Shown here in pieces: positions 627 through 62,900 of a stretch of 64,000 nt of DNA; within the stretch, counting starts at the first letter, position 1, and every line of letters starts with the position of its first letter. Where the stretch lies: the NCBI GenBank assembly GCA_032622095.1, contig CP136061.1, forward strand, positions 136,361,587-136,425,586. Reading direction: 5' to 3'. A program made the translations under genes and the position numbers. This stretch comes from Siphonodentalium dalli (lineage: Eukaryota; Mollusca; Scaphopoda; Gadilida; Siphonodentaliidae). The notes beneath the pieces were generated by a model. That model searched no databases. It was not told the origin of the DNA and worked only from the letters and a program-made list of their open reading frames with translations.

Positions 627-842
627 GTTATTACTGTGACATAGCTGATGCACCACTCATAATATACACACCATATCCATGCCCTGAGGGTTATTATTGC
701 TCAAATGGCACCCGGTGGGCTCAGCAGTATGGGTGTCCAGCTGGCACATATAACCCATATACCCAGCTAGAATCCATTGAACAGTGTACAACCTGCGACT
801 CTGGAAAATATTGTGGATCAGTGGGGCTTTCTAACTATACAG
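627..842 (+). CDS. E1, Cys-rich module exon (phase 1-1, 72 codons)
   Basis: Follows acceptor TTTCAG and ends before donor GTGAGA. It reads GYYCD, then PCPEGYYCSNGTRW, GCPAGTYNP and CTTCDSGKYC, closing with the sequon NYT. It corresponds to the middle of E7, to E16 and to E26, which occupy the same place in later super-repeat units. Splitting a Gly codon after its first base (G|GT) is the standard boundary of this gene. Confidence 0.9.
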
Positions 843-9800: not shown

Positions 9801-12800
9801 GCACACTTAACTCAGGATTGATCAGTACTTCCTTATCACTACAGTATTATTCAACAAACTGTTTGTAATGAACTGTTGTTTGTTTTTCTTCAGGTTATTT
9901 TTGCCCTGAGAACTCAACAGATTATTCCACTAATTCCTGTCCATCAGGACACTATTGTCCCACGGGAACAGGATATGATAGAGAATACCCATGTCCCCGA
10001 GGCTCATACAACGCCCACACTGGTCAGCAAGGCGAAGTCTCATGTCTGCCATGCACGCCTGGGAAGTACTGTGCATCATCAGGACTGTCAACACCAACTG
10101 CTGATTGCGATGAGGGATGGTACTGTACCCTGGGAGCTTGGTCAGCAAATCCAGTTTCTGTTGGGAATTCCAGTGTATCTGATTGCTTTTGTCCTGCTAA
10201 CTCCACCGGAGGCCAGTGTGAACCCGGCTATTACTGCCCACAGGGATCCGTTAGTCCACAGTCATGTCCTCCAGGTATGTAGAACTCACACAGACAGCAC
10301 TGCTGATTATCTCCGGCAAACAAGATTTAGATGGCGGGGATATAGAAATGGGTGTCATCCATTTGTCTGTCTTATGCATTCGTCCATACTTAACTTTGGA
10401 GCTTTCTATCCCAGTCATCTTAGGTCTGACTGATTTTAATGATCTTTGGTTTGCATATTGGCCGCCATGGGGAAAGGGAAGTCCACATGGAAGAGTTTTT
10501 TCCATTTTTTTTGCAGAGTTGTTGCAACTTAGTCTGTGTTTTTTTAGTACTACTGTGAAGGATATCCACATGAAACTCGGGTTTTATCAAGTTATTTCAG
10601 GCTGGATTAAGACAGCTTTTGAATTAAGACACCTCAGAAAATTAATAAAACTCAGCGAAAAGTCATGTACTTTTATGGGAAATATTATGTGCGGTGCACT
10701 TGTTGATGTAGGGTTTCCGATGAGCTGATGTGTAAAGAAATTCAGTCTGCTATTTTTTTAGGCAAGAATTTTTTTAGAAGCTTCTAATGTTCTGTGCCAA
10801 ATTGAACCAAATTGCTGCGGGCAATGTATTGATATCACATTGGGTCAATTGTATAAACAACGTAAATGGATTCTTAAATATCGAGTAGCTACAAGGACTA
10901 CCACCAACATCTTGAATTTTAAATCATCCCACACAAAATAATTCACAATAATGGGCTATAAGTTTCAATTATTTTTTATAGAGTATGCCACTATACAGAT
11001 CCTAAGAGTTTTAGGCCGAATCTCTAATTTTTGGCATATACATTATTTTTTAGCTTCGGACAATTTCTGCTAATAAACAGGACTTGTAGACATTGGTGCA
11101 AACTTGATACTCTCTTGCAGCAATATCTACACATATTCCTGCTACAGTAATGCCCTAAGTAATGGACTCCTTAACCACAGCAGAATTATGGGTAACTTTT
11201 CAGGATTTAGTCGGAAATATGGCTTGTTGCCATTCATCGGAAAGCTCTCGGGAAGAGCTTTCCGATGATTGGCAACAAGCCATATTTCCGACTAAATTCT
11301 GAAAAGTTACCCATAATTCTGCTGTGGTTAAGGAGTCGAATACTTAGGGCACTACTGCTACCTTGCAAGCTTTCAGACCAAATATTCTGATAGTTAATAT
11401 CCTCTTTTTCAGGCAACTTCTGTGAGAGTTACGGATTAAGAAATGCTACTGGACAATGTAACGCTGGCTACTATTGTACCCTGGGAGCTTACAGGCCAGA
11501 TCCTCAGAATGATGCAACAGGCGGAGTTTGTTCTAAAGGACATTATTGTCCTGTTGGTACCTCGGTACCTGTTATCTGCCCACCTGGATACTTTACCAAT
11601 GCTACTGGAAGTGAAGATTTCTCCGAGTGCCGACAATGTACAGCTGGTAAGTGAAGAACTAAAGTGATGGGAGGATGTTTTAAATTTTTGGTTGTCTAAT
11701 TATTTGAGTCTGACTAACTTTCATTATCTATATCTCAATATTAATAGAAACATGTATTGCATATTTCCTTTGGCAGTCCAGGCCTGCAAATAGGGTGTCT
11801 TGTCATTTGCAGAATGAGGTCCCCAGAGGGTGAATTTAGTGATGCTATACAACACAGTGGGCTATCATTACCAAATTCATCCTCGGGGACCCTCATTCTG
11901 CTTAAGCCTGAATGAGCAGAAGCAGAATGAGGTTTCCAGAGGGTGAATTTGTTGACACTAGCCCATTGTGTGGGGTAGTATCACTAAATTAACCCTCTGG
12001 GGACCTCATTCTGCAAATGACAGACACACTATTTGCAGGCTCCTTTGGCACTTCCTGCAGACTATATTCCTTATGAAATTTCATGTATGAGTATGAGTAT
12101 AAATATATATATTTTTTACTACAAAGCTTCATTTTCGTTTTCCAAATTTAGTTTGCTAAAACCAAGTATAAGTTATATAACAGGCTCTGGATTTCACTAG
12201 CTAACTCTTTCCTACATACTTAATCCTTTCCTGGTTTTAGGTTACTATTGTGACAGCTCTGGTATGGAGGAGCCCACGGGTCTGTGTGATAGAGGATACT
12301 TTTGTCCGCAGGGACAGAATGTCTCTGCTCCAGCTGAGTTTGTATGCACACCAGGACACTACTGTGAGACTGGCAGTCCTGACGAGTTAGTGTGCCCATC
12401 TGGAACCTACCAGGATGAACATAGACAAGTATGTATTTGAATTTCTGTGTGGTTGCTTATGTCATATACCTACATTTGAGTTCTCCTCTGACTATATTTT
12501 GACATTATAATCTAAACGAAAGTTGTTAATACGTTCATTATTTTTTTACTTAGAAATTTAAATTTTGGGGTTTTCAGATAATGCAGATTATGGCTGCTTC
12601 TTCACTGCCAAACACGGTATGTGACTGAATTGGCCCAAAATACAAATTGACTTTGGATTGGGGATTTGTACGATGCTTTAAATAGGTTAACTTAATCATC
12701 TGAACATACTTTGTCTCATTGTTAATTATACATCCTTGAGATGTTTTTATTTTATACCATTCACTACATGTAAAAGGCCAAATAAAAAATATGATTTGAG

Positions 12801-15800
12801 TCTCAGGTCTCAGATGCCACTGCATTGAGTTAAATGGCCTGCATTGGACGTTTTATTTCGATTTTTGATATTATGGCAAAAAAAATCATTAAATATGACT
12901 ATGTGACTCAGAATTCTATCATTGGTGACAAGGAAACATGTTTTTTCTTCAGCAGAGGCATTATAGTTCAGAATTTTTTGGTTTAAAATTACCCACTCAG
13001 TCAATCGATTTTGAGGTAAAAAATAATCAGGTGGGGGAGAAGGAGGAGATAAACTGGGTAATTTTCAACAAACAAAATTCTGAACTATAATGCCTCTGCC
13101 GAAGAAAAAAGCATGCTTCCTTGTCACCAATGATAGTTTTTCTGAGTCACATAGTCATATTGAATGATAAAATTAGACTAATTGGCCACTACATGTGGCA
13201 GGGGGTGGGGGATAAAAGAAGACAAACTAGGTAAAACCAGTCTTAGCAAACCTGTAATGATATAGAACCTTTTTGCATTTCTCCATCAATATTTTAGTTT
13301 CCAGTTGATATCTTTCTGAAATGAAATATGAAACAAGCTAGAGGCATTTTATGCCACACCTAGCGGTGTTCATGTTGATCATATATTAATCTACAGGTCA
13401 TAACAAAATAGTAAGTTTGTAGGCTATGATTAGTGTATTAAAGGTTCATGGAGTTACTATATCAACTGCATATAATGTGTTATCGACTGACTTCCATGCT
13501 TGTGAATTTCAGTCAACATGCAAGATCTGCCCAACAGGATATTATTGTGATGGAACCATACAGAACAACACAGTCTGCAGCCACGGCATCCAAAATCCAT
13601 CACCGTGTCCTGCAGGGTTCTACTGTTCGAATGGAACAAGGTTTGCCACCGAATATGGCTGTCCGAATGGCACCTATAGTAATCAGACACATCTGGAGGA
13701 GTCAATAGAGTGCACACCCTGTCCACCTGGGCAGTTCTGTGACAGTCTTGGTTTATCTGAACCGGCAGGACTATGTGAGGCTGGATTTTACTGTATTGGT
13801 GGAGCCACCATGACTTCTCCCACTGATGGGACCAGTGGTGACATATGTGCCAAGGGAGGCTACTGTCCAATTGGATCAAAGACCCCAGAATTATGTCCCC
13901 CTGGAACATATAATCCTACTGAAGGTATGTTTTTTGAAAGAAATTCTGGTCATATCTTGGTCATACCTTTTAAACTAATTCAAGCCTGATTATTATTATA
14001 TGACCGTTTTGAAAAAAAAATGACATATTATGTTATTGGCACAAAATACAGTTCAAGTTTGAATTTGGTTTCCGCCCACCAGTTTTTACCAGAGTTACAT
14101 CCCTTTTTGTTGGAATTTGCAATTAATTTTTGTTTCCTGACGATAACTTTAGTAAGTTTGAATTTAATGGAAAGAAATTTGGTATGTGAGTTTACTAGCC
14201 TAAAATACAGGTCACTTTCGTATTTGGGTTTTGCCCACCAATTTTCACCTGTGTTAAAAAAATGATTTTTTATCATTTTCATGTAAATTAACAACACTAA
14301 GTACGAATATTTTGTCAATATTAATTAATTTATTTGTTACAAGCCAATCAACTTTTCATTCAGTAATAGCTGTACGATATACATCAGAATATGTTTAGTC
14401 AAAATCATGCTCTTCAATTATTTGTTTTAATTCGGTGAGAGGAGCAACACTGACAACCAAATCTGGCAAACGGTTCCATGGTATTTGTAGTAAAAAATAT
14501 TTTCAACCATGTTCACTACTCGACTGTTGAAATGCAAATGAGTGTCCTCGAGCACTTCTACACACAGTCCTTCTGAATTGTTTGTTGGTACCCACATTAT
14601 AGTAACCATGCATGCATTTATATACCTCAATAAAATCTCCCCTCAGCTGTCGATATTTCATAGACATGAGATTCAGCTTAGTAAGTCTTTCTTTGTAATG
14701 GAGATGTTTTAGGTGAGGAAGAAGTCTGGTCGCTCTACTTAGAACCCGTTCACTATCTGTTCACATGAGTGGAATATTTCAACCAATTTACAGTGTGATT
14801 TACCTCTATGTAAACCTTACTATTTTCTAGAAGTTATATTTTCAGGTTTGAAATCAGTTGAACAGTGCACAGCTTGCGATTCAGGATATTACTGCCCTAA
14901 CTACGGCCACATAACTCCATACTCCAACTGCTCTGCCGGATACTACTGTAGTGGGAATGCTTCAACTTCCACACCAACTGATGGCAGCACTGGTGATCAG
15001 TGCCCAATCGGACACGAGTGTCCGGTGGGCTCATCCCAGCCAATACCATGTGCTGCGGGTACTTACACAGACATCCAACAGAGTGATACATGTGAAGATT
15101 GCCTCGCTGGTTACTATTGTATAAACGGAAGTCAGCCAGAGTTATGTCCTCCTGGGTTCTTTTGTCCACTAAGCACAGGATTCTACTGGCAGCCATGTCC
15201 GATGGGAACATTCAATCCTAGTTCAGGCTTAAAGAATGAATCACAGTGCTTGGCTTGTTCCGGGGGTCACTATTGCGACCAGTTCAACCTCACGGTTGAG
15301 TCAGGACAGTGTGGTGCTGGTTATTATTGTCGGCAATTATCAACCATGCCAAGACCGAGTGGATCGTCTGCAGATTTTGGAATTTGTCCTGCAGGCTATT
15401 ATTGTCCCGTTGGAACACAGGATCCATTCCCCTGTCCAGCCGGGAAGTTCAACAATGTTACCGGGATTACTAGTGAATTAGCTTGTCAGGCATGTACCTT
15501 CAGTAATGCCCTAAATAATCGACTCCTTAACCACAGCAGAATTATGGGCAACTTTTCAGGATTTAGTCGGAAATATGGCTTGTTGCCATTCATTGGAAAG
15601 CTCTCAATGAGAGCTTTCCGATGAATGGCAACAGGCCCATATTTATGGGTAACTTTTCAGGATTTAGTCGGAAATATGGCTTGTTGGCTCAGAAATGGTA
15701 ACGCGCTCAAGATCATATATTATATACCCATGATTGTAATTATAGAATATAAAATATATTGGTTTCACGAATGACCAACTCATAGAATTAATCGCCTTGC

Positions 15801-18800
15801 ACTTCTTGGCATCCGAATAACAATTGAAATTGAAATTCCCAACTACACCTTTTACCGGACTCGGCCTCCGGGTTGCAGTTTGACTTTTAATCCGTCTAAA
15901 AATTCCCATTCTATAAATAAAACGCCCATGCGCCCACTGTAATTAAGAAACCGCAGAACATTATACACGTTAATCCTTTCATGATGGGAGCTATATGCTG
16001 GGGCTGCATGAACCCTTTCAGTGCTTAGTCTGATTTTTGTATCAACCCATATTTCCTTGATCATTTTTCAAATTTATTGATTATAATAATGTGATACATT
16101 GATGGAAAGAGCTCGGACTTGGCACTGAAAGGGTTAATTAAATACCATGTGCCATTGCTTTCTCTTATATATGCGAGTTTTCTATTTGGAGACTCACATA
16201 TATAAGAGAATGCATTGGCACATGGTTTTCGAAAAAATATCAGAAAGTTATGTGATATCAAATATTTTGTTGCCAGTTCAATAACATGTCACTCATTCAT
16301 GCCATGCAGATATCAGGCCTATTCAGTAGTACCAGAACTAGAATTAAACCTCATATATGTGTGAACTGCATAACCTGAAGTTAACACTTTGATAACTTGA
16401 TACTCACATGTGAGTAGTTACTTGATTGATGTTCAGTCATTTTTAGTTCTTTAAGCTCTTTAAAAAGCAATTTTTAGTAAGTCAGAGAACAATAGAAAAA
16501 ACCCACACGTCAATATGGTCAGTAGAGCCACACTCCCATCTGTGCATCCGTCCATCGACAATTTTCGTTAGCACGCCCTACAGGTTACATCTATCACACG
16601 ATTGTCAACAAACTTCATGAGGATCTTCGGGGTGACCTCTAGATGGGAGCCATTTGAATCTATCGCCACACCCTGCAGCCCACATTTATTGGAGAATTGT
16701 TTTGAAAATTTACGCATGTTTTGGATCTCCTCTAGACATGAGCTATCAAATTTGAACAATTTGCAATGAAAAAGATGTCCACCAGAAGACACCTTGGATT
16801 TTACTCTTTGCATGACTAAATCCTTTGCAACACCATACAGACCACATCCCACATCCGATCATCAGCAAACTTGATATGGTTCTTTGGGGTGACCTCCAGA
16901 TCAGAGCCATCGATTTTTTCCTCAAAATTAGAATCCGATGTCTTCTGGTGAAAATAAAATCATGCTCTGATAATTCATCAATGCAAAACAATTGAGTATC
17001 AACAACCAAGTGTCGAAACAAAAATTCCTGGCGATTTTTGTATGCAATAAAACTGAATATTATGCAATCTCTATGCAAATATAAATGGGTGAGAAACAGT
17101 CTTTTTAGAAAGAAATCGCTTGGTGCAAGCGATATTTATGCAAATATCCGAAATATGCAGTTAAGCGATATGCAGTTAACTGAAACTGACTGCACATGTA
17201 GTGACTTTTGTTGACGGATGCATAGTGGTAATGCTTATGCCCATAATGTGTCGCAATTTAAGTAGTAAATATTTACATTTGTGCGAAGTTCAAACGTTGT
17301 GTACAGTCGATGTGGTTGGAATTTTCAACAATCTCAGTTAACTGCTACATTCTGCCAGATAACTTATCAGTCTTATTTACTGAATTGAGTCCACAATATG
17401 TCTTTAAGAAATGGATGTTGATTGTGTTGCATTCCTTCGAGTATGGATGTAAGTTGTTATTTGCGCTCCACGCATAAAAGTTTCAACTTCCATTCATACT
17501 CCACGGAACACAACACAATCAAGTCCATTTCTTATATTTACACTCAACTGTCAGATTAAAAGCGCATTTCAGATTTTCAACGATATTCTTATAGCGCGTT
17601 GCAAGTTGTGTCCATGCAATATAATAAAAAGTTGGGGCCTACGCACGACATCACATAACATGATTTCAATCAACCAATGTCTTCTGTTTAAGTTCCACAG
17701 TCCGAATTCATGTATGAGTATAAATATTTAAAGACATTATGGACTTGTTCAGGTGCGTGAAACTGATAAGTTAGTATGTAGTTCTATGTCAACTGGACGA
17801 ATGTAGCATTCTACTAACATCACAACAAATTTCAAACAAATCGGCTGCACGACTCCATAAAAAAAATCATCTGAACTATGCTCATTTGCAAATATTTATG
17901 TCTCAATTCGGGACGCAACTATCGCCGATAAACTGACGCAAAAGTTTACGCCACCGAGAGTCACTGAATTTAATTAATTTATAGGAATGACGGTGTGTGT
18001 TGTCAATTTGGATATAATATTTGTTAAAATAACTACTTAGAGCAAGATTATTCTCCAATTCTATCTGATCACCCTATTGGAGTGTTTCACATCACTTTAA
18101 ATATCAATTGTTTTTATGTTTGGATGTCATAAACCTGAGCTATAGTAATGCCCTAAGTAATCGACTCCTTAAACACAGCAGAATTATGGGTAACTTTTCA
18201 GGATTTAGTCGGAAATATGGCTTGTTACCATTCATCGGAAAGCTCTCGGGGAGAACTTTCCGATGAATGGCAACAAGCCATATTTCTGACTAAATTCTGA
18301 AAAGTTACCCATAATTCTGCTGTGTTTAAGGAGTCGATTACTTAGGGCATTACTGTACATCTTATTGACACAAGTTACCCCATGAATCATTTCAGGCTTG
18401 TCTGCCTGGCTATTATTGTGACAGGCCAGGACTCGAGGAGCCTTCAGGGATTTGTGAACCAGGATTTTTTTGCACATCTGGATCCAATTCTTCGAACATT
18501 CCTGTTACATCTGTCACTGGAGGTCCCTGTCCTCGTGGGACATATTGTCCAGAGGGAGCCAGCGTTCCGGTGTATTGTCCAGCAGGATCATATAACTTGA
18601 TAGAAGCTCAGAGTAATTGTACAGATTGTCCACAGGGATACTACTGTGAGAGCGGCAGTTACAACATTACCGCCTGCTTAACTGGTAAGCTATAGCATTT
18701 CAAAAGAAACAATATTTCTGGTTGGCATTTCACATACTCTACTTTTTTTGGTGTTCAAAAGAATTTTGATAGTGAACAATATACACTTTTCATTGTCCCA

Positions 18801-21800
18801 TAATGGGTTGATTTCTCATGTAGTCAAAAGTCTTCTGTGTATTACAGTTTATACAAAGAATATCATAACTAATCTTTGCTCAATCTTTCAGATAAAATAT
18901 ATCGCATGAAATATCAAATCTCAAAATAAAACAAATTTAATATTTTAGGCTTACTTACCTACCAACCCTAATGTTTTATGTTTTAATGCCAGACTTACTC
19001 AAGTTAGAGTTATTCATCTAATCTTTTTCTAATTTCCGCAAACACAGAGATGACTAATGCAGAACACACTTTAGTTATCCATGCCGAGGTAAACAAGTCG
19101 TCCTTGTTTTCTTCTGAGATGATAAATTCTATGACTTCACTGTCACTTCAGTGAGATTTTCCGAGAGCTGAAGTTTGTATATAATTTCATATATCTGTCT
19201 GGCAATTGTTATCAACCGAGCTTGCAATTGCAAAAAAACTATAAAGTACATTATAACCTCTCCAAGCCAAATGCCCTCTGACTGACCTATCTGTCAGTTT
19301 AAAGAGGTGTTGAATTTGGTTTTTAGAAAATCATGCCATCTCGAAATATGAAGCCACCATTACAAAGAGTGCTCCAGGCAAAGATTAATTGATGCAACTT
19401 TAATAGACAACACAATAATAATATTTATATATGCAATCAACATATCACGAATTTACACACCATGTTGTTCAGCCACCTACAATTTTATAAGCCCATATAT
19501 GCAACATAAAATACATTGATTGCTTATTATTACACCCGAGAACATTAATTTGAACATATTAGAAAGAATTATCTCTAATCTATCTGTTGTAAAAAATAGA
19601 AATTTCCGTTAGTCGAGTATCCAGTTCGATCGATTGGACGAAATTTTATTGGCCGAATTTGCCAACGAATAAAATGCGTGATAAAAGAAGTTCAAGGCTG
19701 CTCAAGTCAAGATCGACATGAATGTAAATAAAATAAAACTGACGCAGAGGAACAACTGACAATTGTGTCAATAAAAATCACTTTTCAAATTGGAAAATAC
19801 AAATTAGATACTTTATGAAATTTTCATGAATCCTCCTAATGCATTGCCATTCTGCAATTTTATCATGAATTTGAAATTACGTCTTCGAAAATGGAATTGG
19901 AATTTTTTTCTGATTAGCAGTACTAGTAGGCTGCTAACTGTCTAATTGTTACAGGTGAAGCCAATTATCGCCACAGACATGTCATTTGGCAACAATTTGG
20001 AGATGGGCCTCTTTTATTTTTAGAAAATGCAACGTAGTGATCAGTTATTACTTTGAAGCAAACAGTTTCAATTCACCAAGAAAAGATCGGTAACAATGGA
20101 CACACCAAACAATCTCTTGGTAAATTTACCATCGGGGACAATCAACTCGCATGAATTCCTACGCCGGTGACTTGGCCACTTACATCTTTATCGAGAAATA
20201 CAAGCAACAAGTAACTAAGGTATTGTTAGGACTTCTCCAATCAGAATCCTGGAAAATGAAACAGAAAAATAGAGGTGTAATTATATTAAACTGACAATGC
20301 AAATAAAAAGATCAAACAGAAATATGATGATCTTGTCGCAGTTTTTAGCTCACCTGAGACGAAGTCTCCGGTGGAGCTATAGTCATCACTTCTCGTCCGT
20401 CCATCCATCCGTCCATCCATCCGTCCGTCAACAATTCTTTGAACATCTTCTTCAGATCTGTAGGACCGAATGGGTTCATATTCAGATTTGTTCAAATGAA
20501 GTCACCAGGTCAAATAGTTGCGAAGCTAGGACCATAACTCTTTCCCACCATATTAATTCTTAAAATGACTTCTTCTCAAATTATATTGGACCAAATGGGT
20601 TCATATTTGGTATGAATGGTCCTTGGGTGACTGGGGTTCAGATTTGTTCAAATGAGGTCACTGGGTCAAATGTGGGATCCAGGGACATAACTAAAAAAAA
20701 AAAAAGTCTGATTGAACCCATTGCTCAATTAAAAAAAAAATTCAGATTAAACTCCTTCCTCAATTTAAAAAATTATTTATTTTTTTTTAGTTATATTAAG
20801 GCCAAAAAACAAAAAGTTTTTTGATTCTCGGGCATATACCTCGTCTGCAAAAAAAAGGCCCTCGTTGAACCATTTTAGTACAAATTTAAATTTTACCGAA
20901 GCTGTCAAATGATAACACGAAAATAGGAAACTAGAAAACAGAAATTATTTATGTTTCAAACATCGAATATGATAGACATACAATGGTGTATGTGTTAGTA
21001 TTCAAAAACAGACACTAGGCAACGATAACTACCAGGTAAGTTGTCACCACAAGCTGCCCAAACCCCAAGTATTGGTGATGTGTATGCTGGTTTAATATTT
21101 GAAGTTTTTATGACTAGCATGTATAGTTACTATAGTATAGATGGATAAATATTAAAGTATATAGATAGATATAAATAGATATATACTATAAAAGGTACAT
21201 ACATATATCAAATATATCAACAACAGTAATTTGAAATATACATTGTACATATATATCATTCTGGTAAATCCCTATAATAGGCTATATGATGTACGGATAG
21301 TACAATGTCATATATTTATGTCATACTTTATTTAGATTTCATGTACGGAATACTACGGATAGTACAATGTGATAATTGGTCATTCTTTATAGTGGAATAC
21401 ATTAGTTTATATCAAAACAATACCTGGGAAGGTATAATAACCCATGCTAACTATGGGCATTATTCCCATAACAAAAATAAAAAATAAAAATAAAACCCTC
21501 GCTCCCTCATCGATTCTCAAAAAAAATTGCCTGATCGAGATTCAAATTTTTTTTTTTTTTGGCCTAATAATAATTTTTTTTTAGTTAATTATTAAAGATA
21601 CAAATATATAAAGAAGCCCACCACCCTTGCCCATTGGTGCTTCTAGCATCCCTGTTATCAAACACTTGTTTTAAATTTATTTCACAGTCACAATACAATA
21701 CACCCTGTGCATATGCTAGAATGCTATCTCTTACAATGAAAGTCAGTAAGGCCTGTCTGCTCTGTTGATAATTATCCACATGTCAAATCTGACAGTGCAG

Positions 21801-48800: not shown

Positions 48801-51800
48801 ATATTTTTACATTTAAAAAAAATATTCATTCTTCAATTAAGTAGCCGAGTTCAACAAATTCAAATTAATTGAGTGGATTTATTGTCAATTGCTAGTGATT
48901 CATCAAGCCTGAGTTTAGTGTGCCTGTCATTTGCAGAATAAGGTCCACAGAGGGTGAAATTAGTGATGCTATCCTGCACAATGGGCTACCATCACCAAAT
49001 TCACCCTCTGGGGACCTCATTCTGTTATGAGAGACATAGACCCAGATTGAAGTTCCCAAATAGTGAATATTGTGATGTACACCCATTGGGAACCTCAATT
49101 ATGCAATGTGTCCTCTGCCAATTTGGGGATATAGAGAAACTAAACTAAAAGCGAAATAGAATCTTATGTGGGATAGCATCACTAAATTCACCCTCTGGGG
49201 ACTTCATTCTGCAAATGACAGGCACACTATTCTCAGGCCTGGACTTCATTAAATGATTAATTCATCTATTATGTTTAATTAATCATTGCTTACATAGCTC
49301 TGTAATATGAGCCTACTAATATGTGATTTTCTGGTATAGAAATATATGTCTTTAGGATCCACTGAAGATAGGAACTACAAATTACATGTGAATGCTTTCT
49401 CTTATAACTTAATCCCTCTTGCTGATGAATAGGGCAAGATTTGACGATGTCATACCAACACGTGTTCCTAGCAGTGTTAGGCAAAACATTGACCAGAGTC
49501 TACCAGATGTTCTTTGTTTACACTCACGTGCGGTCAAAATATGCGTGTTGGATAAATATGTATGAACAACAAAGAAAGATAAATGGCAAAAACAAAATAA
49601 GGGAATAGTTGTTATGTTATTGGGTGTTCCAATCGACTCGAACAGAAATTTTTCGTGTTTATATATCCGTTCTAAATGTTCAGAATAAGGTAGATTGGGT
49701 TATAGCAAATAAGATACGCAGAATATTTGTAATCGACCCATACATGAAATACTATCCTCAGAACATAAGATCTACGGAGTGCAGTGACTACTTCAACTTT
49801 GTTTATAGTTTCGATTTGATGGCTAAATGGTTGTTATAATTTAAAGACTTCCCCGACATTGGTGCAATTCTCAATGCGACTTCTATCATTTTCACTAGCG
49901 CCACTAAAATTCTTATATATATACATATCCATCTGGCTGTGCTTATTATCCCCCGCCAAATGAAATTTGTGTGGGATATAGGAATGGGTCCCGTCCGTCG
50001 TTCCGTCCGTCGGTCCATCCAGAATTTGTAAGAATCATAACTTGAACAAATGTCAACGGATGTCAAAGATTTTTGGATATGAGTTCACCTGACCATTACC
50101 TAGAATGAGTTCGCAAGCCAGGTCCGGCCAGATATTTTTATCGGAGTTATTGGACTTTGTTTATTATTTTTGTCGAATTTACCAAATAGCAAATAGACGA
50201 CGTCACAGGGTTCATTTCCACAAATGTCAATGGATTTCAAAGATTTTGGTATATGAGTCACATGACCAGTATCTAGAACATGTTCGCAAACCAGGACCGG
50301 CCGGATATTTTCAGCAGAGTTATTGGACTTTGTTTATTATTTTTGGTGCAAATGGACGACGTCGCATGGCTAATTTCCACAAATATTAACAGATTTTTGT
50401 ATATTCGTTCCCATGACCAGTACCTAAAATGAGTTCGCAAGCCAGGCTTTTTGACAAAATCCCCACCTCTTGTTTAGTACATACTGAGAAAGCAAACATT
50501 ATTGAGAATGCACTTCCCCAACTTCACAAATCGAAGGGGGATACTGCCGTCTGCGACTGCTTGTTATATTTCTTTTTCGTTTGAATTTGTGATCTACATT
50601 TATTCGTCTAGACATTTATTATTTTGTACTCCTGTTTCTAAATAGCAAGGGGTGCAAGGATATTCACCCGATGGTAAAGGGGCGAGGCAGTGTTTTTTCG
50701 TGTGTAGGCCTATGGCACAATTCAGATTCGACGGTGACGCATACATGATAGAAAAAAGCTAAAATACAATGGCAGTAAAATTAGATTTTAGTAACAAATC
50801 ATTTGTCGTAGAGTCAAAATACTATATGTGTTAAGAAATTGTATAAATGAACTTTAAACCTTATAAACTTGCTGTTAAATTAATTTATTTACTAGAATAT
50901 TCGAATAGCCTTAATTGGTGCATAGGACAAAGTAAATGAATAACATTGTGTATTAATTGCCGCTCATATGTGAGCCATGTTCCTTGAATTTATAAATTCA
51001 TATATTTGGCTTGTTACAATGCCAGTCAATCAACATCTATACGTAATGGGACAATTCATGCACTGCACGATAAGCTAACAGAGCTAGAGACCAAATTACA
51101 ATTACATTCGTCGCTGCACGTGTTATTGATATAAAATGAAACATTATGCATGGTGGGCACAATTGCAACCAAATACTAGAACTTGGTGATGCATTTTAAA
51201 TATCGAGGGTGTGCTAGTAAATGGAACACATGGGCAAATTTACCAAATACAAAACAATAACACTCGCAGTACTTAATAACGGCATGACCAAGTGTCGAAA
51301 TATCCTCCAAATTGTCAGCAAATTGTCAGTTATGATTATAATCCACTTTACGAAAGTGTAGCATGTTTTGCGAGACATCATTGTGTGTTTCCGTGTTAAT
51401 CGATTATACACAGCTGGCCTTTGTTTTGCCTACCAGCAGCCAACACACGTGGTCGCTGTGACGTCATTGTTTGTATACAAAATTCTCGCCTATTATTAAT
51501 ATTCACCAGAATTCTATTTATAATGCATTCAAATGAATGTGTGAAATGAAGTACAGTAATGTCCTAAATAATCGACTCCTTAACCACAGCAAAATTATGG
51601 ATAACTTTTCAGGATTTAGTCGGAAATATCGCTTGTTGCCATTCATCGGAAAGCTTTCAGTGAGAGCTTTCTGATGAAAGGCAACAAGCCATATCTCCAA
51701 CTCAATCCTGAAAAGTTACCCATAATTATGATGTGGTTAAGGAGTCGTTTATTTAGGGCATTATTGTAATATTGCCCAGGAGCTTAATTATGATGTTTTC

Positions 51801-54800
51801 TCTAGCTGCAAATACTTTGTCAAGTAATCTTTATAAAATAATAATATTCTTTTCAGTTATAATATGAGGCAGTATGCTCTATTATTTATGAGATAATTTC
51901 TAAGTCCCATTGATGTTTGTCTTTCCAGGAGCATATTGTCCTGCGGGGACACAGTATGCCAGGCAGTACCAATGTCCAACTGGCACTTATAATAATCAGA
52001 CAACAGCTGACAACATTTTTGATTGTCTCCCTTGCACAGGTTAGTGGGCAATTATGTTTTAAAATAATATAAATCAAATTAGCAAGCATTCATCTTGATT
52101 TCCTCAGACCAAGTTTTCATAATTATACCCCCAGTAAAGAAATAATGGGGGGGGGGGGGTATATAAGAATCAGCTCATCCGTCTGTGGACACAACTTTGT
52201 CCGAGCTTGTATTCCTGCATTTTTCAGTAAATTTTTTTTAACTTGCCACATATATTTAGTAGCATGGTGTACACCTGCTATTATGAGGTCTGTCTAGTGT
52301 AGTTATCCTACATCCGAATGATGATTTTGAAGCTTTTGTGATGAGTACAGAATCGCGGTGTGTAGAAAAATTTTCTCGGAGGTTTCCGATTCGAAATTAA
52401 GCCGTTTCCCAGCAAATTTCGATGATTGTATTACTGTAAAATCCTTTTTATTCGTGGGGGTTCATTATTCATTGATTTCGTGGTTCGACCCAACCACGAA
52501 ATCTAAACCCAACGAATTTATTGACTCAAAGTAAATCAGAGAAAATCTCAATACATGAAATCGAAATGAATATCGGGCATGAAGTTTGTTTTCGACATGT
52601 CGTAAAATGGGTTGACAAAAAACACGGAAGACGAGATGAAACATAATTTTCACCACCGTAATGTGAATAATCGCCACGCTTTCATGATGATCATTTGCCA
52701 ACAATTGTGTCGACGGCATCGTTCATGACTTGCGTTGTTGCAGTATGTTGTGCATCACTGATAATTTTTGGATCGGGAAGACCAGCAATGTTCGGAGATC
52801 GAGTTTCGACTTTTCCACATTTTAAACACGAAGTGAGAGACATAAAAGTTTGTTAGTGGCCTATATGTAATTGTTTGTGTATAACACAGTCTGCTCCCTA
52901 CTATAATAATTTGTATGAACAATGCTTACTGAATTGATCTCTTAATGAAGGCTAATGGTTTCATCATGCGCAGGTTTACATAAAACAATAAATGACTACC
53001 TCGCCAGCGTGTGAAATTAAGCCGATAGCTATTAGTACATTGATTGCGTGATGTCCTTTCGGCACCGGATATCTGGTGGCCCGATATCTCAATAATGTCC
53101 ACTCTCAATGATGTCAGAAACCTGCTATTGTAGGAGCTGTTGATGAAGATAAATATGACACCTGATCCACAAATTCATGTCCCCACGAAATAGCCTTTAT
53201 ATAAGAAACCACGAAAATTGAGGCCGATGAAATTAAAGCCAATCACAGTATATAAACTCTCTTTAATCAACTAATGGATACAATCTCATTATTTCCTGAA
53301 TAAATGGTCAGAATCTTACCACTGGTGACTGGTTCTTCTAGGGCTCTGTCCAATTTGATTACATTATTTACTCGACGTGAGCTGTTTGACAATTGTGTCA
53401 GAAATTCAATTGATGCTAATGTCAATGAGCAGTATTTAATATGTTTTGAGTAACCAGTGACCAATTGGTTGATTGCTATGATTGGTAAGATAGTTACCTA
53501 CTGTTCTCAGAGGTATTCATATCGTTGAAAAGAAACATCTTGTGTACATAATACCTCCGCCTAATGGCATCTCTGTCATCAACATGTGCTCAGTTCATGA
53601 ATGCCTTGAGACCAGTAGGTAATTAATACATTAAGTAAGTGTCAAGTTTTTTTCTGCTTTTCTCGGCATTGTACTTTGCCCTTGCCACGATATATATATG
53701 AACTTATCTGGATTAATATTTGTATCACATTAATAAAGTGTGGCCTATAGCTATTCAAGTTTCAATATATTGAAAATCTTAAAATGGCACTGTTTTCATA
53801 TCGAATGGGAATGTTTTACATGTTGCATAAACAAATTTTGTACCCAAGTCAATAAATTTACAGCTGGACAGTACTGTGGTGGTGACGGTTTATCAGAGCC
53901 GACATTAGACTGTGCAGCTGGGTGGTTCTGTTCAGGTGGAGCTTTCGAGAGCAAGCCATCACCTGCCTATAATGGCAGCAACCAATACAGCACTAACCAG
54001 ACATGTCCCATCTACTCACTAAATGATACCGGTGGTATTTGTGAACCAGGTATGTTGCTACATCATCATTTGTGCATTTTTAACCAATTGGCTGCTTTAA
54101 CTAAATTACGTCCGTACGGACGTCCATACTCAAGGATGTCTTTACTGAGTATACGGATCAACTTCAGCACACATGTAGTTGATCAACTTTCATAACTGAA
54201 CTCAGAAATTGGTGTATCGGAACCACTGTATCTCAAAGTTTGGAACAGTGTATGGTGTTCCAGGAATGTGAATGACAATAGCCTTTCAAATAAATCAGTT
54301 GTAGGGTTTTCGTTATATTCCCGTTATATGTTTTCACTGGAATATGGCCATACGGTCAATGACCCATCACACTTTGTCATGATGCCATTTAGCAGCAAAG
54401 AGGTTAAAATTGTACTCTATTTTATTCAGTCTTTACTTGTTTGATATTAGTGAGCCGTCTTAGCTCAGTCAGTTATAAGACATACCAACTACTGCAGAGA
54501 CTCATTGCAACATAATCATCTTTATGATAACTCCTCATTTATAGTTTAAATCTACTTTGAGTTGCAAAACTGGCTGTCTGAAATGACCACACATGTGGAA
54601 TTGCTGTGCTGCCAATGTTAATGACCGACCTGTACTACACAGACTCCAGTTTTTATGTGTATGTTTGGAGGCGATGAGGTCATAGGTCAATTGATGTTTT
54701 CAATGAGATGAGATGGAATAAAATTGTAGGAATATGGGGTGGGTTGGTAATCAGTTATAACCTGATTATAATTAAACAAATGTTCAAATAATGAAGAGGA

Positions 54801-57800
54801 ATTCAACATTAAATTTATATATACTCAATTGTTAAACATAATTAAAACATAATTAAGATGGATTCCTCACTGAGCAGACAGCTAGGAGGTCTATTTTATG
54901 TACATTTTGGTTTCGTTTGGTAAGTTGATAGGAGTGTACGATAGATTTTTTTTAAACATTGGTCTTGTTGATTTCTTTAAGTCTATCTTCCATTTGATTC
55001 TGTATTGTGGGAAAAGTTTGTTCCGGTAAATCTTCTGAGAAAACACTTTTAGGTTTTCCGGACGTTAGCATTGCATTCTGACGAGAATCATTTTGCAAAA
55101 TTGTGTAAAAGTTTTTAAAATGAACTGGGTAATAGTGAACCAATCGTGGATAATTAAGAGTCTTGCATGTAGGTTATGCAGATTATCAAATTTTAGAATT
55201 TCCATATTTTTGAACAGTGGATCAATGTGGCTTTTATATATCTTATTATTAATTATACACATGGCTTTTTTCTGAAGTTTAAATATATTGTTTTTTATTT
55301 GAATTCCCCCATATATATGGCATATATCAAGTGGCTATGAACCAATGAAAAATACAAGGATTTCAGTGCTTCATGGGGTAAAACATGGATGTTCACTACT
55401 ATAATTGTTTTTTCAGTTTTCCATTCTAGAGTTATTCATCTTTGTTCATTTGGAAGTGTTTGTTTTTTGTCCTTATCTCTACCGGTTGACGGATATCAAT
55501 GAAATTTTGTATGGATGTTTACCACCATGATTGCAATCAATTGAGTGCAGTTCAATTCGAAGAAAATCTAGAGATGTCGTAGCTTTCAAACATTTATTGT
55601 ACTGAATAATTTTAATGATTAATTTGAAGAGAAAGCTGTACGTGCGTGAAGTTTTAAAATAGTTTCATGTTAAGATAACGCAATATACCTCTTTGGGACA
55701 GTCACACATTATTTCGATTCTGAGTCCACAATTTCAATGAATACAAATATGGCTCTGTATTTGCTCACAACTGGGTCTGATTTTTATGTTCAAATCTATG
55801 TGGATTTAAAAGGAATTAATGCTGATCACACTATTTGTTTTTACAGGCACATACTGTCCAATTGGCTCCAGTCAGCCTTTGCTCTGCACAATTGGTCTGT
55901 ATTGTGAGGGATATGCTCTGGACTCACAGACCGGTGAATGCCATGCTGGATTCTTTTGTAATGGCAGTGCGAGTGTGCCTAACCCAGTATCATGCTCTAA
56001 AGGTCACTACTGCACCAATGGCACCACTGTTGAGGAGCCATGTCATCCAGGAACATATGCAGGTATGTAATTTTTTTTAGGCCAATGTATTCTCTTATAT
56101 ATGCGAGGCTCCTTACTCGCATGTATAAGAGAATGCATTGGCATGGGGTTTTCGCAAAATTTCAAGAGGTTCCAGTCATGGAGGTTTAAATCTGATCAGC
56201 CACATACACTATCATCAAATGAGACTATCTTTGGTCCGATAGGACACTATCATCAAATAAGACTATCTTTGGTCCGATGGGACACTATCATCAAATGAGA
56301 CTATCTTTGGTCCGATGGGACACTATCATCAAATGAGACTATCTTTGGTCCGATAGGTCTGGAACCTTTGGTATTTTGAGTAGCCTGAGCCAAAAGCTTC
56401 AATTTTGTATAATAGCATACAATGTAAAATAATTAAATGAATCAATGTTGAAAAATCACAAATAGGGAAAATAAATCATAGAAAGGCACATCACATAGAA
56501 AAGTCCCCATCTTGTGTAAATAACTTCCAATGTGAAAGTAAACAAGATGCTATAATTTTCTTTGAGTAAGAATGATGGCCAGAAGGAGGCTTTATAATTC
56601 CCATTTTGTCAACTTATTTCAGATATCATACCAGGGAGTAATCCAGGGCCCATTTGGTACCGGTGTAACACGATATCTCACCCCCTGGGTATCTTCTCCC
56701 CCACTCGTACCTTTTTTTTCCCTCACTTATTTTATATTATTATGGTAAGAAATGCTGAGAAAACTATTAAATTTTTTATTTTTTTTTGGTTATTTTGAAG
56801 TTTAACTTAACCCAATAATAGCATAAATATATCAAAATATTACCTTATGATTCTATCGTTTAATTTGCTTTATATAGTCATGAAATGGCAAGAAATTAAC
56901 TTTATATACCCAGGCCTGAGTATTTCCCCCCCCCCCCACCCAGCACCTACATATGACAAAAATTAAACGTATGATTTTATTGCTTAATTTGCTTTATATA
57001 GTTATGAAATGGCGAGAAATTAACTTTATATGAGCAAAATTTGATAGAGTAAGAATTTGGGGTGGGGGGGGGTGGAGATACCCAGGCTCTGAGTATCTTC
57101 CCCCCCCCCCACCCAGCGCCTACATATGACAAAAAATTAAACGTATGATTTTATTGCTTAATTTGCTTTATATAGTCATGAAATGGCGAGAAATTAACTT
57201 TATATGAGCAAAATTTGATTAGAGTAAGAATTTGGGGTGGGGGGGAAGATACCCCAGGCCAGATACCCCCCCCCCCCCCCCCCCCAGCACCTACATATGA
57301 CAAAAATTAAACGTATGATTTTATTGCTCAATTTGCTTTATATAGTCATGAAATGGCGAGAAATTAACTTTATATGAGCAAAATTTGATAGAGTAAGAAT
57401 TTGGGGTGGGGGGGGGGGGGGGGGGGAGATACCCAGGCCTGAGTATCTTCCCCCCCCCCCCCCCCCCCCCCCCCCCCACCCAGCACCTACATATGACAAA
57501 AATTAAACATATGATTTTATTGCTTAATTTGCTTTATATATAGTCATGAAATGGCGAGAAATTAACTTTATGTGAGAACAATTTTATTCTTACTCTATCA
57601 AATTTTGCTCATATAAAGTTAATTTCTCTCCATTTCATAACTATATAAAGCAAATTAAGCAATAAAATCATACGTTTAATTTTTGTCATATGTAGCCGCT
57701 GGGTGGGGGGTGAAGATACTCAGGCCTGGATATTCCCCCCCCCCCACCCCAAATTCTTACTCTATTAAATTGTTCTCATATAAAGTTAATTTCTCGCCAT

Positions 57801-60800
57801 TTCATTACAATATAAAGCAAAATAAACGATAAAATCGTAAGGTAATATTTTGACATATTTATGCTATTGGGTTGTGTGAGGGGTTAAGTTAAACTTCAAA
57901 ATAAAAAAAAATTAAATTTTTTTTTAATAGTTTTCTCGGCATTTCTTACCATAATAATATAAAATAAATGAGGGAAAAAAAATATATGAGTGGGGGGGGG
58001 GAAATACCCAGGGGGGAGATAAACTGTTACAACCGGTATCACGCCCAAATAAAACTTTTATTGGTGCGGCTCAAATTCATGTAAAACAATTTTTTACGTG
58101 ATTTGGACTAATTTTGGAGGGTTCTACAGTCAGGAAATTATCATAAATAAAGTGGATATACTACTAAAACCAGTTGGTGCCCATATTTCTTACAATAAAA
58201 GCTAACTCATCCAGCTATCCATCGGAAATGTGACATTGTAAATATAAACTTGTCATGTTATAACCGTCCCTTTTATTCAAGACCTATTTTTTGGTTAGAG
58301 ACAAACACTTGTAAATGGCGATGTTGACATGTTGGCCAAAAGTAAGATTATGTTCCAGCCACCCAAATTCATGCTACTGGTACGCCCAAATTAGCCCTGG
58401 ATTACTTACTCCCTGCATACAGCCAGTCAGTAGATCATGCTACGTTAATAGAAGTGTCATAATTTTTGGCTCCTTTCAGATTTTGAGGGAGGAATGAACA
58501 TCTCTGATTGTATGATGTGCACACCTGGATTTTACTGTCAGCAGTATGGTCTGCCGACACCAAATGGGCCATGTGATTCTGGATACTATTGCCCTGGCGG
58601 ACAAGATAATACTAGACCGAGTTCCCTCGCATGTAGTCCAGGTCATTTCTGCCCACAGGGGAGCTGGAATCAGACCGGCTGTCCGTCAGGAACCTACCAG
58701 CCACACTGGGGACAGTACGACTGCCTCGTGTGTCCACCTGGCTCCTACTGTAAAGCTTTTGGTGAGTGTATGTCCATTTATCTTCAGCACAATTCAGAAC
58801 TATTATCGCAATAAATTTTAGGCTATCATAATTGTGTGTTTGAGGCGTTCTGATATGACTAGGTTTGAATTTCATATGCACCAGGGTTGTTATGGGTTAC
58901 TTAGGAACGTTGTGGTGTTTTGTTTTTTCAGAAAGGTAAAGGGAGAATATTCTGTGGCAAATTTAGTTATTGGCGACGGCAGAGCCGGAGCCCATTAACG
59001 GATATTTGCCACAGTATATTTGCCCTGCACCTTTCTGAAATCACAAAACACCACACTGTTATCCCCATTCTAATTCTCTTCAAATTTAAATGTTATTTTG
59101 ACATACACATGCCTTGTAATTATCAACAAAATGTGCAGCCATAGAAAACACTCAGCCAATTCACGACTTTTTGTTTTAAATTTAATGCTCTGGATAAAAT
59201 ATAGTCCCCTCAATTAGCATCGCGCATACCGTTAAAAATGCTGATAAGGATGAAAAATTGCCACCTCGAATAAAAATGAATTTGCACAATTAGTTTTTGC
59301 ATGTACCTTATGTCTTTCTCAGATGTTTATCACTTACAAATTGCGGTTTTGATTTTACCGCAAACTTGAATTTGAAGTTGAATTGAAACAATGGAAATTT
59401 TTTTTACTAATTGAGATGTGTATTTCAAGCTGTATCTGTCACGGTTTCATGTCAAGAAATTTTGGTCAAATGATATTGAGACAATGATATTTAGGGGATA
59501 TAACGGTGTGGTGTTTTGTGATTTTTGAAAGTACATGTATACAGGGAGAATGTATTGACTATTAATTTTCGAAAAAAGCCGCTGCTGTGTTTTTTATATA
59601 GCAACCAGCTAGTAATGGAAGTCAGTGCATCTACTCCGTAACGTCGTCGCGGCAGGATGTCATGGAGAGGAGCGGAACAGTGAGCGGAGCTCGGTAGGCT
59701 AGGAAATCAGCTGCCGTCAATATTGGCATGTAGGAATATCTAACATTGAAGTGGTGAACCGGACTACACTACACTACACAGTTTTACGATAATTAACCCC
59801 CCGCAAATCTTTGATGTTTCATGGGGTATATTGGCACAAGTGCATTAGAATTGTGTCTTGAACCAGTTTAAGGGAACCCAGAACAAGTCTGAGAATAAGG
59901 TGCCTGTCATTTGCAGAATGAGGTCCCCAGAGGGTGAATTTGGTGATACTATCAAGCATAGTGGGCTAGCATCACTAAATTCACCCTCTGAGAACCTCAT
60001 TCTACTTAAGCCATCTTCTCTGGAAAGTATTTTTATTATCAAATTTCTATAGAAACTTCTTCACATAGATTCTATTTCTTTTTTAGTTTAGTTTCTCTAT
60101 ATCCCCAAATTGGCAGAGGAACATTGCATAATCGAGGTTCCCAATGGGTGTACATCACCATATTCACCAGTCTGAGTCTATGTCTTCCATAGCAGATGAG
60201 GCCATGCAGAATGAGGTCCCAAGAGGGTGAATTTGGTGATACTAGCCTCCTGTGTGGGATAGCATCACTAAATTCAGACTATTGAACAGCTGTAGATGTG
60301 TTCTATAATCTGAAACACTCAAGACATCCTCCTTATTATCACGGCTATATATAGGGCTTTGCAGCAGCCTGTTGACACCCCCCACATATTGTAATAAAAA
60401 TTCCATGTGACTGTTCTGATTGGCTTTAGCTATGTCCTGCCACATTTTGTGGTTCACTGACACTAACATAATACTTTTAGATTCAGATTTGTTGAACTCG
60501 GTCACTTGGTCAATAGGAGCGGCCATCCGAGCATAACTTTTCCCCTCCAATGTAATTTTTAAAACATCATCTTCTCAAGAAGCATTAGGCCTAGTTATCT
60601 TATATGTGCGGTCCTTGCATGACTGGGATTCAGATTTATTAAAATGGGCTGCTGGGTTAAAAGAAAATAAAAGAGGGAGGTACCTGAGAACACAGAATTT
60701 TCATTTATTTAGCCTAATTTAAGATATATATGAATGTTGATGAGTGTAATGCAGCACACAAGATCTTTGCAATCTAAATATGTCTGTCCCCACCATTTCA

Positions 60801-61077: not shown

Positions 61078-61583
61078 GTGGGTATAACTACGATAATACT
61101 AGGAGATTGTCCATAAACAAAAATTTATGGATTTCACCGATGGCACATGCATTGCGATCCAAGCGATGTAACTAAATTTTCACACCGTGCTTTTCATCTC
61201 AAGATTAAAACATATAGCTTTAGGACCCTGAGAAAGCATGCTATGTCTCAGGCCCTCTTTAGCAGATTGGCCTTTGATTCCTATTCTAAGAAGTGTAGCC
61301 AGACATGTTCAAAATGTGAGCACAATCGGGTGTAAGTGAGAGATATTATAGATGCACCTAAAGCGTGACAGATAACTATACAGATAAACAGACACAGACA
61401 AACACTTGGCTTATATATTTTGATTTGGTTCATCAATAGGGTAACATATACAGTAATGCCCTAAGTAATCGACTCTTGCCATTCATCGGAAAGCTCTCCC
61501 CGAGCCATATTTCCAACTAAATCCTGAAAAGTTACCCATAATTCTGCTGTAGTTAACCCTTTACCCAACAGAACGGCCCTGTG

Positions 61584-61800: not shown

Positions 61801-62240
61801 CACAGGGCATAACTGTAACCATCACAATGTGGTCAATGAGCCGGTTCCAATGATATCCATATTTGCATGGTGTTATTGAGACAGACCCAAGATAATTTAG
61901 GCTGTTGCAGCTTTATTTGGCCGTTTTTGGCCGGTTTGTTGGGTAAAGGGTTAAAGAGTCGATTACTTAGGGCATTAATGTAGGTAAGCCGTGCACGTAA
62001 ATGGAGCTTTCCAGACATTCATTAGTGGGAGGAGCTTACTTGCTGGGAGACAAGGCAGTAAATTACTTTTACAGCGCTGCCTATATGCTATTATACACCT
62101 GAGATAATACCTACATTTCATCTTCATTTGTTAAAAATATGACGACTGTCATGTTATATGAAAAACAGTGTTCGTATTATTGATTAATTTCCAACATTGC
62201 ACAAATAAAAGTTTCAGTAGATTATGATTTGACAACATAA

Positions 62241-62900
62241 GGGAGCATGTCAAAACCTTTTTCGCATATGCGAAAAATGTGGTGTCATTGACGTCGTTTT
62301 TTCGACATTATCGGATTTTTTTTCGTCATTATCGCACGCCGTAACGTTGTACGTTTTCGTAAATTTTTCGTCATTTTCGCTGTCTTGGTTCGATGTTTTC
62401 GCAATTATCGCAGTTTTGTTTCGCAGTTTTTGCTCAAATGTTCGCTGTTCTGTTTCGACATATTTTCGCAGTGTTTGTTTTCGTCAAGATCGCAGCATTA
62501 TATCTGTCAATATTGCTGTTGTGTCGATATGATTGGCAGGCCAGTTTGTGTTCAATAAATACTCCATAGTCGCAGTTTTATACTGATGTGTCGCGAACGG
62601 GAAGATGTCGATGTCCATGCTGAAATTTCTCAGATCGGAGTGACAGTTTGTGTTCAATAAATACTCCATAGTCGCAGTTTTATACTGATGTGTCGCGAAC
62701 GGGAAGATGTCGGTGTCCATGCTGAAATTTCTCAGATCGGAGTTTTTATCATAAGAATTCCATTGATTTAATCGGAGTATTCTCTACGATATGAAAACAT
62801 TTCCGATTTGATCGGAGTTTATAAATGTAGGCCTATTAGTAAATTTCTCCGATCTACTGAAATCTCCGATTTGGTTAATATCGGACAATTCAAACTTCGT
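62241..62900. mobile_element. Left end of an N-like DNA element (right end not found)
   Basis: GGGAGCATGTCAAAACC followed by the palindrome TTTTTCGCATATGCGAAAAA, then many TTTTCGCAATTATCG-type and later CTCCGATT/GATCGGAG-type short repeats. The layout copies element N: a CAT-x-TCAAAAC terminus, a palindrome, then subterminal copies of half the palindrome. The end is not identified; 62900 is only the limit of visible repeats. Confidence 0.6.
62542..62742. repeat. 102-bp tandem duplication
   Basis: CAGTTTGTGTTCAATAAATA through CTGAAATTTCTCAGATCGGAG occurs twice with period 102 and one visible difference (GATGTCCATG and GGTGTCCATG). Very similar copies imply recent duplication. Confidence 0.9.

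What the first reader, a model, noticed from the sequence alone, without database searches (positions are those of the whole stretch)
9894..61077. Super-repeat of about 700 residues above the module level
The segment G-W-[YF]-C, about 20 residues, CxCP, TGGxC occurs once each in E4, E10, E15 and E23. In joined coding sequence its Trp codons lie at 1484, 3578, 5702 and 7802 (from the first base of E1), giving periods of 2094, 2124 and 2100 bases (698, 708 and 700 residues). A second landmark (ELCPPGFFC in E3 and E8, DACPPGYYC in E12, DPCPKGRYC in E20) gives 701, 784 and 700. The gene therefore grew by tandem duplication of large, multi-exon blocks and not only of single modules.
Basis: seen in the sequence. 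Interest (0 to 1): 0.75.

Follow-up and report, generated by a model that had tools for sequence, protein, structure and literature searches.

The report
Nine-module super-repeat in cysteine-rich rod protein
A giant cysteine-rich, probably extracellular rod protein is built from four-plus copies of a 700-residue block of about ten small modules; the blocks are real and ancient, but their exon boundaries mostly differ, so the exons were apparently not copied along with them.

Summary
A self-alignment lag scan peaks at 680-720 and 1390-1430 residues; six module-order shuffles show no such peak. The window holds four whole units (696, 698, 706, 702 aa) and the start of a fifth. Each has nine modules, one of them double. 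In units 3-4 a 52-aa short module sits one full module later than in units 1-2, which explains the odd 784. The units are 42-46% identical, with synonymous sites near random, so the duplications are old. Intron gain after duplication, or heavy turnover, fits better. The closest solved protein by profile and predicted fold is Chlamydomonas mastigoneme protein MST1, whose cysteine-rich domain is 678 aa and 26 nm. Best reading: a disulfide-rich, N-glycosylated extracellular rod with about 27 nm periodicity. Super-repeats are known from titin and nebulin, so this is a new variant of a known kind.

The parts
627..13539 (+). Super-repeat unit U1 (696 aa; E1 to the start of E7), module order a-F1-F2-s-F4-F5-t-D-e; its first CxxC lies before the window's first exon
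13540..24210 (+). Super-repeat unit U2 (698 aa; E7 to E10), same module order as U1
24211..35538 (+). Super-repeat unit U3 (706 aa; E10 to E15), module order a-F1-F1b-F2-s-F4-t-D-e
35539..58742 (+). Super-repeat unit U4 (702 aa; last 2 bases of E15 to E25), same module order as U3; 10 introns
58743..61077 (+). Start of a fifth unit U5 (module a, 38-44% identical to the other four a modules, then the first residues of F1); the last exon found, E26, ends in a donor site, so the array runs off the window
10115..10126 (+). Landmark 1 GWYC in E4 (double module D of U1)
   Evidence: position computed from the model
23602..23613 (+). Landmark 1 GWYC in E10 (D of U2)
   Evidence: position computed from the model
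34936..34947 (+). Landmark 1 GWYC in E15 (D of U3)
   Evidence: position computed from the model
53920..53931 (+). Landmark 1 GWFC in E23 (D of U4)
   Evidence: position computed from the model
6756..6779 (+). Landmark 2 LCPPGFFC in E3 (short module s of U1)
   Evidence: position computed from the model
15142..15165 (+). Landmark 2 LCPPGFFC in E8 (s of U2)
   Evidence: position computed from the model
28983..29009 (+). Landmark 2 DACPPGYYC in E12 (s of U3)
   Evidence: position computed from the model
44763..44789 (+). Landmark 2 DPCPKGRYC in E20 (s of U4)
   Evidence: position computed from the model
15490..18395 (+). Intron 8, the only GC-AG intron of 25 (24 GT-AG), with a MITE-like element near each end

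Best explanation
This is a slice of one very large eukaryotic gene for a secreted or cell-surface, disulfide-rich, N-glycosylated rod. The rod is made of small cysteine modules of the growth-factor-receptor / ephrin-receptor-like type. A block of nine modules (ten if the double module is split; an ancestor with one more full module is possible) was duplicated in tandem to at least four copies plus the start of a fifth (the copies are shown, the duplication is inferred from them). The first split separated the ancestor of U1/U2 from that of U3/U4, and each was then duplicated again (inferred from similarity and module order). The duplications are ancient, and most of today's introns appear to postdate them (inferred). 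If the modules stack as in MST1, each unit would be about 27 nm long and would present the distinctive double module D once per period, as a regularly spaced docking or self-association site (inferred; the docking step is the least certain).
For: Super-repeat. Unit relations. Age: amino-acid identity 42-46% and nucleotide identity 49-53%; fourfold third bases agree in 31-37% of sites (31% if random); Cys codons agree in 48-61% (53-56% if random). Introns: 2 shared pairs among 24 introns. Extracellular character: 73-75 Cys in each of the 4 units, and 79 N-x-S/T sequons against 22.5 expected from composition. Module type: Ephrin_rec_like is listed for 17 of 26 exons and passes Pfam's cut-off in 2 of 26 (E14 27.0 and E25 23.9 bits, cut-off 23.1); no other Pfam family passes its cut-off in any exon. 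Fold: two predicted models from different exons both have only Chlamydomonas mastigoneme chains at E<=0.001 (7 of 7, 7 of 7; best E 5.7e-9 and 1.4e-6). Two sequence profiles also hit MST1 first (E 5e-5, 3.5e-4). MST1's cysteine-rich region is 678 residues and a single 26-nm domain (passages of PMC11015965).
Against: No gene end was identified in the window, no strongly hydrophobic 19-residue stretch exists in the model, and no transcript was available, so secretion and the splice model are inferred. The models are only moderately confident (mean pLDDT 68.4 and 66.3; pTM 0.56 and 0.50), and the mastigoneme chains superpose loosely (rmsd 6.7-14.2, TM by query 0.36-0.54), so the 27-nm figure is an extrapolation. 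The MST1 profile score is a sum over several stretches; the best single one has an i-Evalue of only 0.4. Three other PDB sequence searches found nothing. The tree of single modules is weakly resolved (1 well-supported fork of 21). No binding partner or period-matched structure is known.
Confidence: 0.72

Rival explanations
1. Block duplication of multi-exon genomic segments, followed by near-complete intron turnover in each unit.
For: 14 of 26 exons are symmetrical 1-1, a class fit for exon duplication; two intron positions are shared between units (F1b: introns 11 and 17; t: introns 9 and 21) and may be survivors; loss-only models with 40 or more ancestral positions per unit are not rejected.
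Against: Two shared pairs are within chance (mean 0.61, P 0.113). Loss from 22 or 30 ancestral positions per unit would leave 9.2 or 6.8 shared pairs; the expectation falls to 2 only near 100 positions, or exons of about 21 nt. Large intron turnover is unusual in animals (established knowledge, not tested here).
Confidence: 0.25
2. Not a block duplication: modules were added singly, and the ~700-residue order was produced by convergence or by gene conversion between units.
For: Single modules are weakly resolved, and U2.F1 pairs with U3.F2 (support 94/88), so some exchange between positions is possible; the s module has changed neighbours.
Against: Three specialised modules (s, t, D) recur in the same relative order four times; same-position similarity exceeds all 10,000 permutations; synonymous sites are near random, so no recent conversion.
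Confidence: 0.04
3. Artefact of assembly or of the exon model.
For: No transcript support is available here.
Against: Units are only 49-53% identical at nucleotide level, so mis-assembly cannot create them. The uncorrected DP exon set gives the same peaks at 700 and 1400. The landmarks sit inside single exons.
Confidence: 0.01

Closest known systems
Chlamydomonas reinhardtii MST1 (mastigoneme protein; PDB 9b4h, 8wa2, 8tx1; PMC11015965)
   Same: Long chain of growth-factor-receptor-type cysteine modules; best match by profile and by predicted fold; its cysteine-rich region is 678 residues, close to one 696-706-residue unit here; extracellular filament.
   Different: MST1 has one such region with 26 disulfides, nine Ig-like domains and a polyproline helix (passages). 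Here at least four regions of 73-75 Cys follow one another; no Ig family was listed for any of the 26 exons, and there is no run of three prolines and at most 6 Pro in any 20 residues. The paper gives MST1 a distribution limited to Chlorophyceae.
Pfam PF07699 Ephrin_rec_like
   Same: Listed for 17 of 26 exons and above the cut-off in 2 (E14 27.0, E25 23.9 bits).
   Different: 24 of 26 exons stay below the 23.1-bit cut-off or are not listed, and unit U1 as a whole scores 19.7; the model covers 48 residues and does not describe the 71-80-residue module or the super-repeat.
TNFR / 4-1BB cysteine-rich domains and ELAPOR1
   Same: Next best in both fold searches; weak in profile searches (TNFRSF9 E 1.3 and 0.18) and sub-threshold in Pfam.
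   Different: E-values of about 0.005 or worse in the fold searches; no super-repeat of this kind is known to me in these receptors (recalled).
Titin A-band (11-domain) and nebulin (7-module) super-repeats
   Same: Repeat-of-repeats, with position-specific modules; period matched to a filament: about 43 nm for titin (passages of PMC10665226) and 38.5 nm for nebulin (passages of PMC7109182). A works-like analogy.
   Different: Muscle proteins inside the cell, with unrelated modules.

Membership tests
Super-repeat proteins (titin/nebulin-like organisation, not homology) | Modules at equivalent positions in successive blocks are more alike than modules within a block | tested here: met
   full-length modules, same position 183.8 (26 pairs), different position in other units 156.8 (124 pairs), same unit 155.5 (40 pairs); 0 of 10,000 permutations reach it
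Super-repeat proteins (titin/nebulin-like organisation, not homology) | Period matches a partner filament or lattice | not testable with these tools
   no partner or ultrastructure known; about 27 nm per unit is an extrapolation from MST1
PF07699 Ephrin_rec_like | Score at or above the Pfam gathering cut-off (23.1 bits) | tested here: met
   met by 2 of 26 exons scanned one by one (E14 27.0, E25 23.9); the other 24 are below or not listed (best 22.4, E15); U1 as a whole 19.7. Membership of single modules is therefore supported, of the whole chain only by similarity among modules
MST1 / mastigoneme filament proteins | Growth-factor-receptor-type cysteine-rich rod | tested here: met
   profile and fold matches to MST1 rank first; models of moderate confidence
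MST1 / mastigoneme filament proteins | C-terminal polyproline helix region | tested here: inconclusive
   none in the 2,888 residues of the model, but the gene ends lie outside the window
MST1 / mastigoneme filament proteins | Antiparallel dimer and polymerisation | not testable with these tools
   needs biochemistry or a multimer model

The most novel reading that the evidence does not exclude
A mastigoneme-like filament protein outside the green algae: one chain that fuses four or more units, each the length of MST1's 26-nm cysteine-rich domain, so that a filament repeat that MST1 makes by polymerising separate molecules is here written covalently into one gene, with the D module as the self-association site.
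Probability: 0.12. Interest if true: 0.75.

Novelty: new variant of a known kind. Interest (0 to 1): 0.48.

Why it matters
It gives what looks like an extracellular case of repeat-of-repeats organisation, so far best described for muscle giants, with a measurable prediction (a period of about 27 nm). It also separates two histories usually assumed to go together: the protein blocks were copied, but their intron positions were mostly not inherited, which makes intron gain after duplication directly testable with orthologues. The link to MST1 offers a structural template for cysteine-rich proteins of this type.

Tried and rejected
Relatives: scans of viral contigs and genome contigs with the D-module alignment A1 matched 18 and 62 stretches by pattern, none confirmed. 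These are viral and prokaryotic collections, so the absence says nothing about eukaryotes. PDB sequence searches with a 419-aa piece, with A1 and with E10 alone found nothing. Rfam and tRNA searches found nothing, so the organism stays unidentified.

Single-module phylogeny was tried to see how the extra module of U3/U4 (F1b) relates to F5, which only U1/U2 have; it is too weakly resolved. The whole-unit alignment misaligned the middle of U3/U4 because of the shifted s module, and that script stopped with an error before printing identities; module-wise alignments replaced it. Alignment A3 was poor and was not used further. Literature searches: GCC2_GCC3 with repeats (1 paper), super-repeat with introns, extracellular and tandem duplication (0), Ephrin_rec_like (4), introner and intron gain (28, 8 listed), internal duplication with intron positions (3), MST1 homologues in animals (1,021, 8 listed), ELAPOR1 / TNFR-like (28, 5 listed); in the listings I saw nothing on this gene (listings only). 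Two further searches, on titin/nebulin super-repeats (42 papers, 8 listed) and on mastigonemes (150, 12 listed), led to the papers read. Papers of which I read passages, not the whole: PMC7109182, PMC11015965, PMC9671500, PMC10665226. PMC9671500 reports no MST1 homologue by BLAST in a choanoflagellate, which counts mildly against an animal-side MST1 relative. I considered classic introner insertion for the MITE-like family and rejected it, because the splice sites lie outside the elements.

Full report
What is there. The window is a slice of what reads as a single eukaryotic gene on the + strand. No genome is held for it and the organism is not identified; long introns and repeat content suggest an animal, but this is inference. 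A splice-aware dynamic programme, with three exon ends corrected from the junction DNA (E8 and E10 extended, E26 trimmed) and E1 started at its acceptor, gives 26 exons from 627 to 61077, 2,888 residues and no stop. Of 25 introns, 24 are GT-AG and one (intron 8) is GC-AG.

The super-repeat. A banded self-alignment over 196 lags gives 2.29-2.39 per residue at lags 680-720 and 1.97-2.04 at 1390-1430. The shoulders are 2.11 (730) and 1.75 (1380), and every other lag is at or below 1.63. The result does not depend on my corrections: the raw exon set peaks at 700 (2.32) and 1400 (1.97), and six module-order shuffles reach maxima of 1.41-1.63. Two details of the motif are looser than stated: CxCP is strict in 3 of 4 segments, and TGGxC is strict in 3 of 4 and occurs 8 times in all.

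Anatomy of a unit. Splitting at C-x-x-C anchors gives 38 pieces; 36 make four units of nine modules and two belong to a fifth unit. One module (D, 147-149 residues) is a double module carrying GW[YF]C. Two are short (s, 52 residues, with the second landmark; t, 54-56 residues). The rest are of 71-80 residues with 8 Cys, plus the variable a module that I take as the unit start. U1 and U2 have the order a-F1-F2-s-F4-F5-t-D-e; U3 and U4 have a-F1-F1b-F2-s-F4-t-D-e (my assignment from the pair scores). Total length stays at 696-706 residues. An ancestor with ten modules and one different loss in each lineage, or a gain plus a loss, both fit; a single-module tree cannot decide.

Relations and age. 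Summed module scores over eight shared positions are 1605 (U1-U2) and 1612 (U3-U4), against 1469-1496 for the four cross pairs, in agreement with module order. Identity between units is 42-46% in protein and 49-53% in DNA. Fourfold third bases agree in 31-37% (31% at random) and Cys codons in 48-61% (53-56% at random). The duplications are therefore old, and assembly error or recent conversion is excluded.

Introns. Mapped on module alignments, the 24 introns of U1-U4 (6, 3, 5 and 10) fall at 22 positions; two positions are shared by two units each (one search lists 23 positions because it includes intron 25, in U5). Random placement, with the observed number in Gly codons, gives 0.61 shared pairs on average and 2 or more in 11.3% of trials. 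Loss-only models give 9.2 or 6.8 shared pairs for 22 or 30 ancestral positions (P of 2 or fewer: 0.0000 and 0.0054), but larger sets are not rejected: P is 0.065 for 40 and 0.31 for 60, although these imply ancestral exons of 51 and 35 nt. Eighteen of the 24 introns are phase 1 and 15 of these split a Gly codon; 11 of those 15 follow AG in the exon. I therefore accept block duplication but not 'multi-exon block' duplication; intron gain after duplication is the better reading, with heavy turnover as the rival.

What it may do. The composition (73-75 Cys per unit; 79 sequons against 22.5 expected) fits a secreted or cell-surface glycoprotein; the model has no strongly hydrophobic stretch, and no gene end was identified. 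All 26 exons were scanned against Pfam one by one: Ephrin_rec_like is listed for 17 and passes its cut-off of 23.1 bits in two (E14 27.0, E25 23.9); no other family passes its cut-off, and no Ig family is listed. Unit U1 as one chain scores 19.7. AlphaFold2 models of E10 (285 aa, 9-row alignment, pLDDT 68.4) and of E12 (221 aa, 6 rows, pLDDT 66.3) are of moderate confidence. Foldseek lists only Chlamydomonas mastigoneme chains at E<=0.001 for both (7 of 7 each), with loose superposition (rmsd 6.7-14.2), followed by ELAPOR1 and TNFR-family receptors. Sequence profiles of the same two alignments also hit MST1 first (E 5e-5 and 3.5e-4), as a sum of weak stretches (best single i-Evalue 0.4); three other PDB sequence searches had no hit. 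In passages that I read of PMC11015965, the MST1 cysteine-rich region (residues 1,176-1,853) is one 26-nm domain with 26 disulfides that forms antiparallel homodimers. Scaling by length gives about 27 nm per unit here. By analogy with titin and nebulin (passages of PMC10665226 and PMC7109182), a module that is unique within the unit and conserved across units, such as D, is a candidate for a periodic contact. That last step is conjecture.

A side finding. A palindromic element of about 217 bp with TA-flanked ends was found at 13 places. Two lie beyond the last exon and were left out. Of the 11 in introns of the gene span, 8 lie within 100 bp of a splice site. The expected number is 1.15 with free placement and 1.96 when each copy stays in its own intron (0 of 20,000 simulations reach 8). 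Forty-six other repeat intervals are not enriched (4 within 100 bp, 5.10 expected; of 57 intervals in the span, 11 that touch this element were left out). The test was made after seeing the pattern, and in one gene only. The splice sites are outside the elements. It may bear on how the introns arose or grew, but no mechanism is shown.

Verdict. Its existence is a new variant of a known kind of organisation; the dissociation between block copies and intron positions, and the MST1-like rod of matching length, are the parts worth following.

Noticed in passing
11143-11357, 15501-15686, 18141-18357, 26252-26356, 35831-35937, 38175-38368, 39526-39744, 40283-40463 (near splice sites); 3120-3263, 37915-37956, 51552-51768 (further away); 61448-61556, 61949-61982 (beyond the last exon): Palindromic ~217-bp MITE-like family (ends TACAGTAATGCCC...GGGCATTACTGTA); 8 of 11 intronic copies lie within 100 bp of a splice site, while 46 other repeat intervals show no such bias. 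Unexplained.
   Followed up: partly
15490-18395: Intron 8 is GC-AG and carries a MITE-like copy 11 bp after its donor and another 38 bp before its acceptor.
   Followed up: partly
36479-37372 and 42025-42936: Inverted pair of about 0.9-kb repeats, 82% identical, in introns 16 and 19; probably an old mobile element.
   Followed up: no
56206-56357, 56906-57584, 62542-62743: Tandem arrays: 38-bp unit x 4.0, 170-bp unit x 3.8, and a 102-bp unit x 2 at 99% matches.
   Followed up: no
53864-56062: The D module of U4 has 15 Cys where the other three have 16: the first Cys of CxCP is missing, so one partner Cys may be unpaired.
   Followed up: no
36226-60837: U4 has 10 introns where U1-U3 have 6, 3 and 5, and E17-E26 are all symmetrical 1-1 exons: intron density differs sharply between units of one gene.
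   Followed up: partly
55849-56061: E24 has a sub-threshold match to the chitin-binding Peritrophin-A domain (PF01607, 18.0 bits, cut-off 22.1); E6 a weaker one (12.8 bits). Probably Cys spacing by chance.
   Followed up: no
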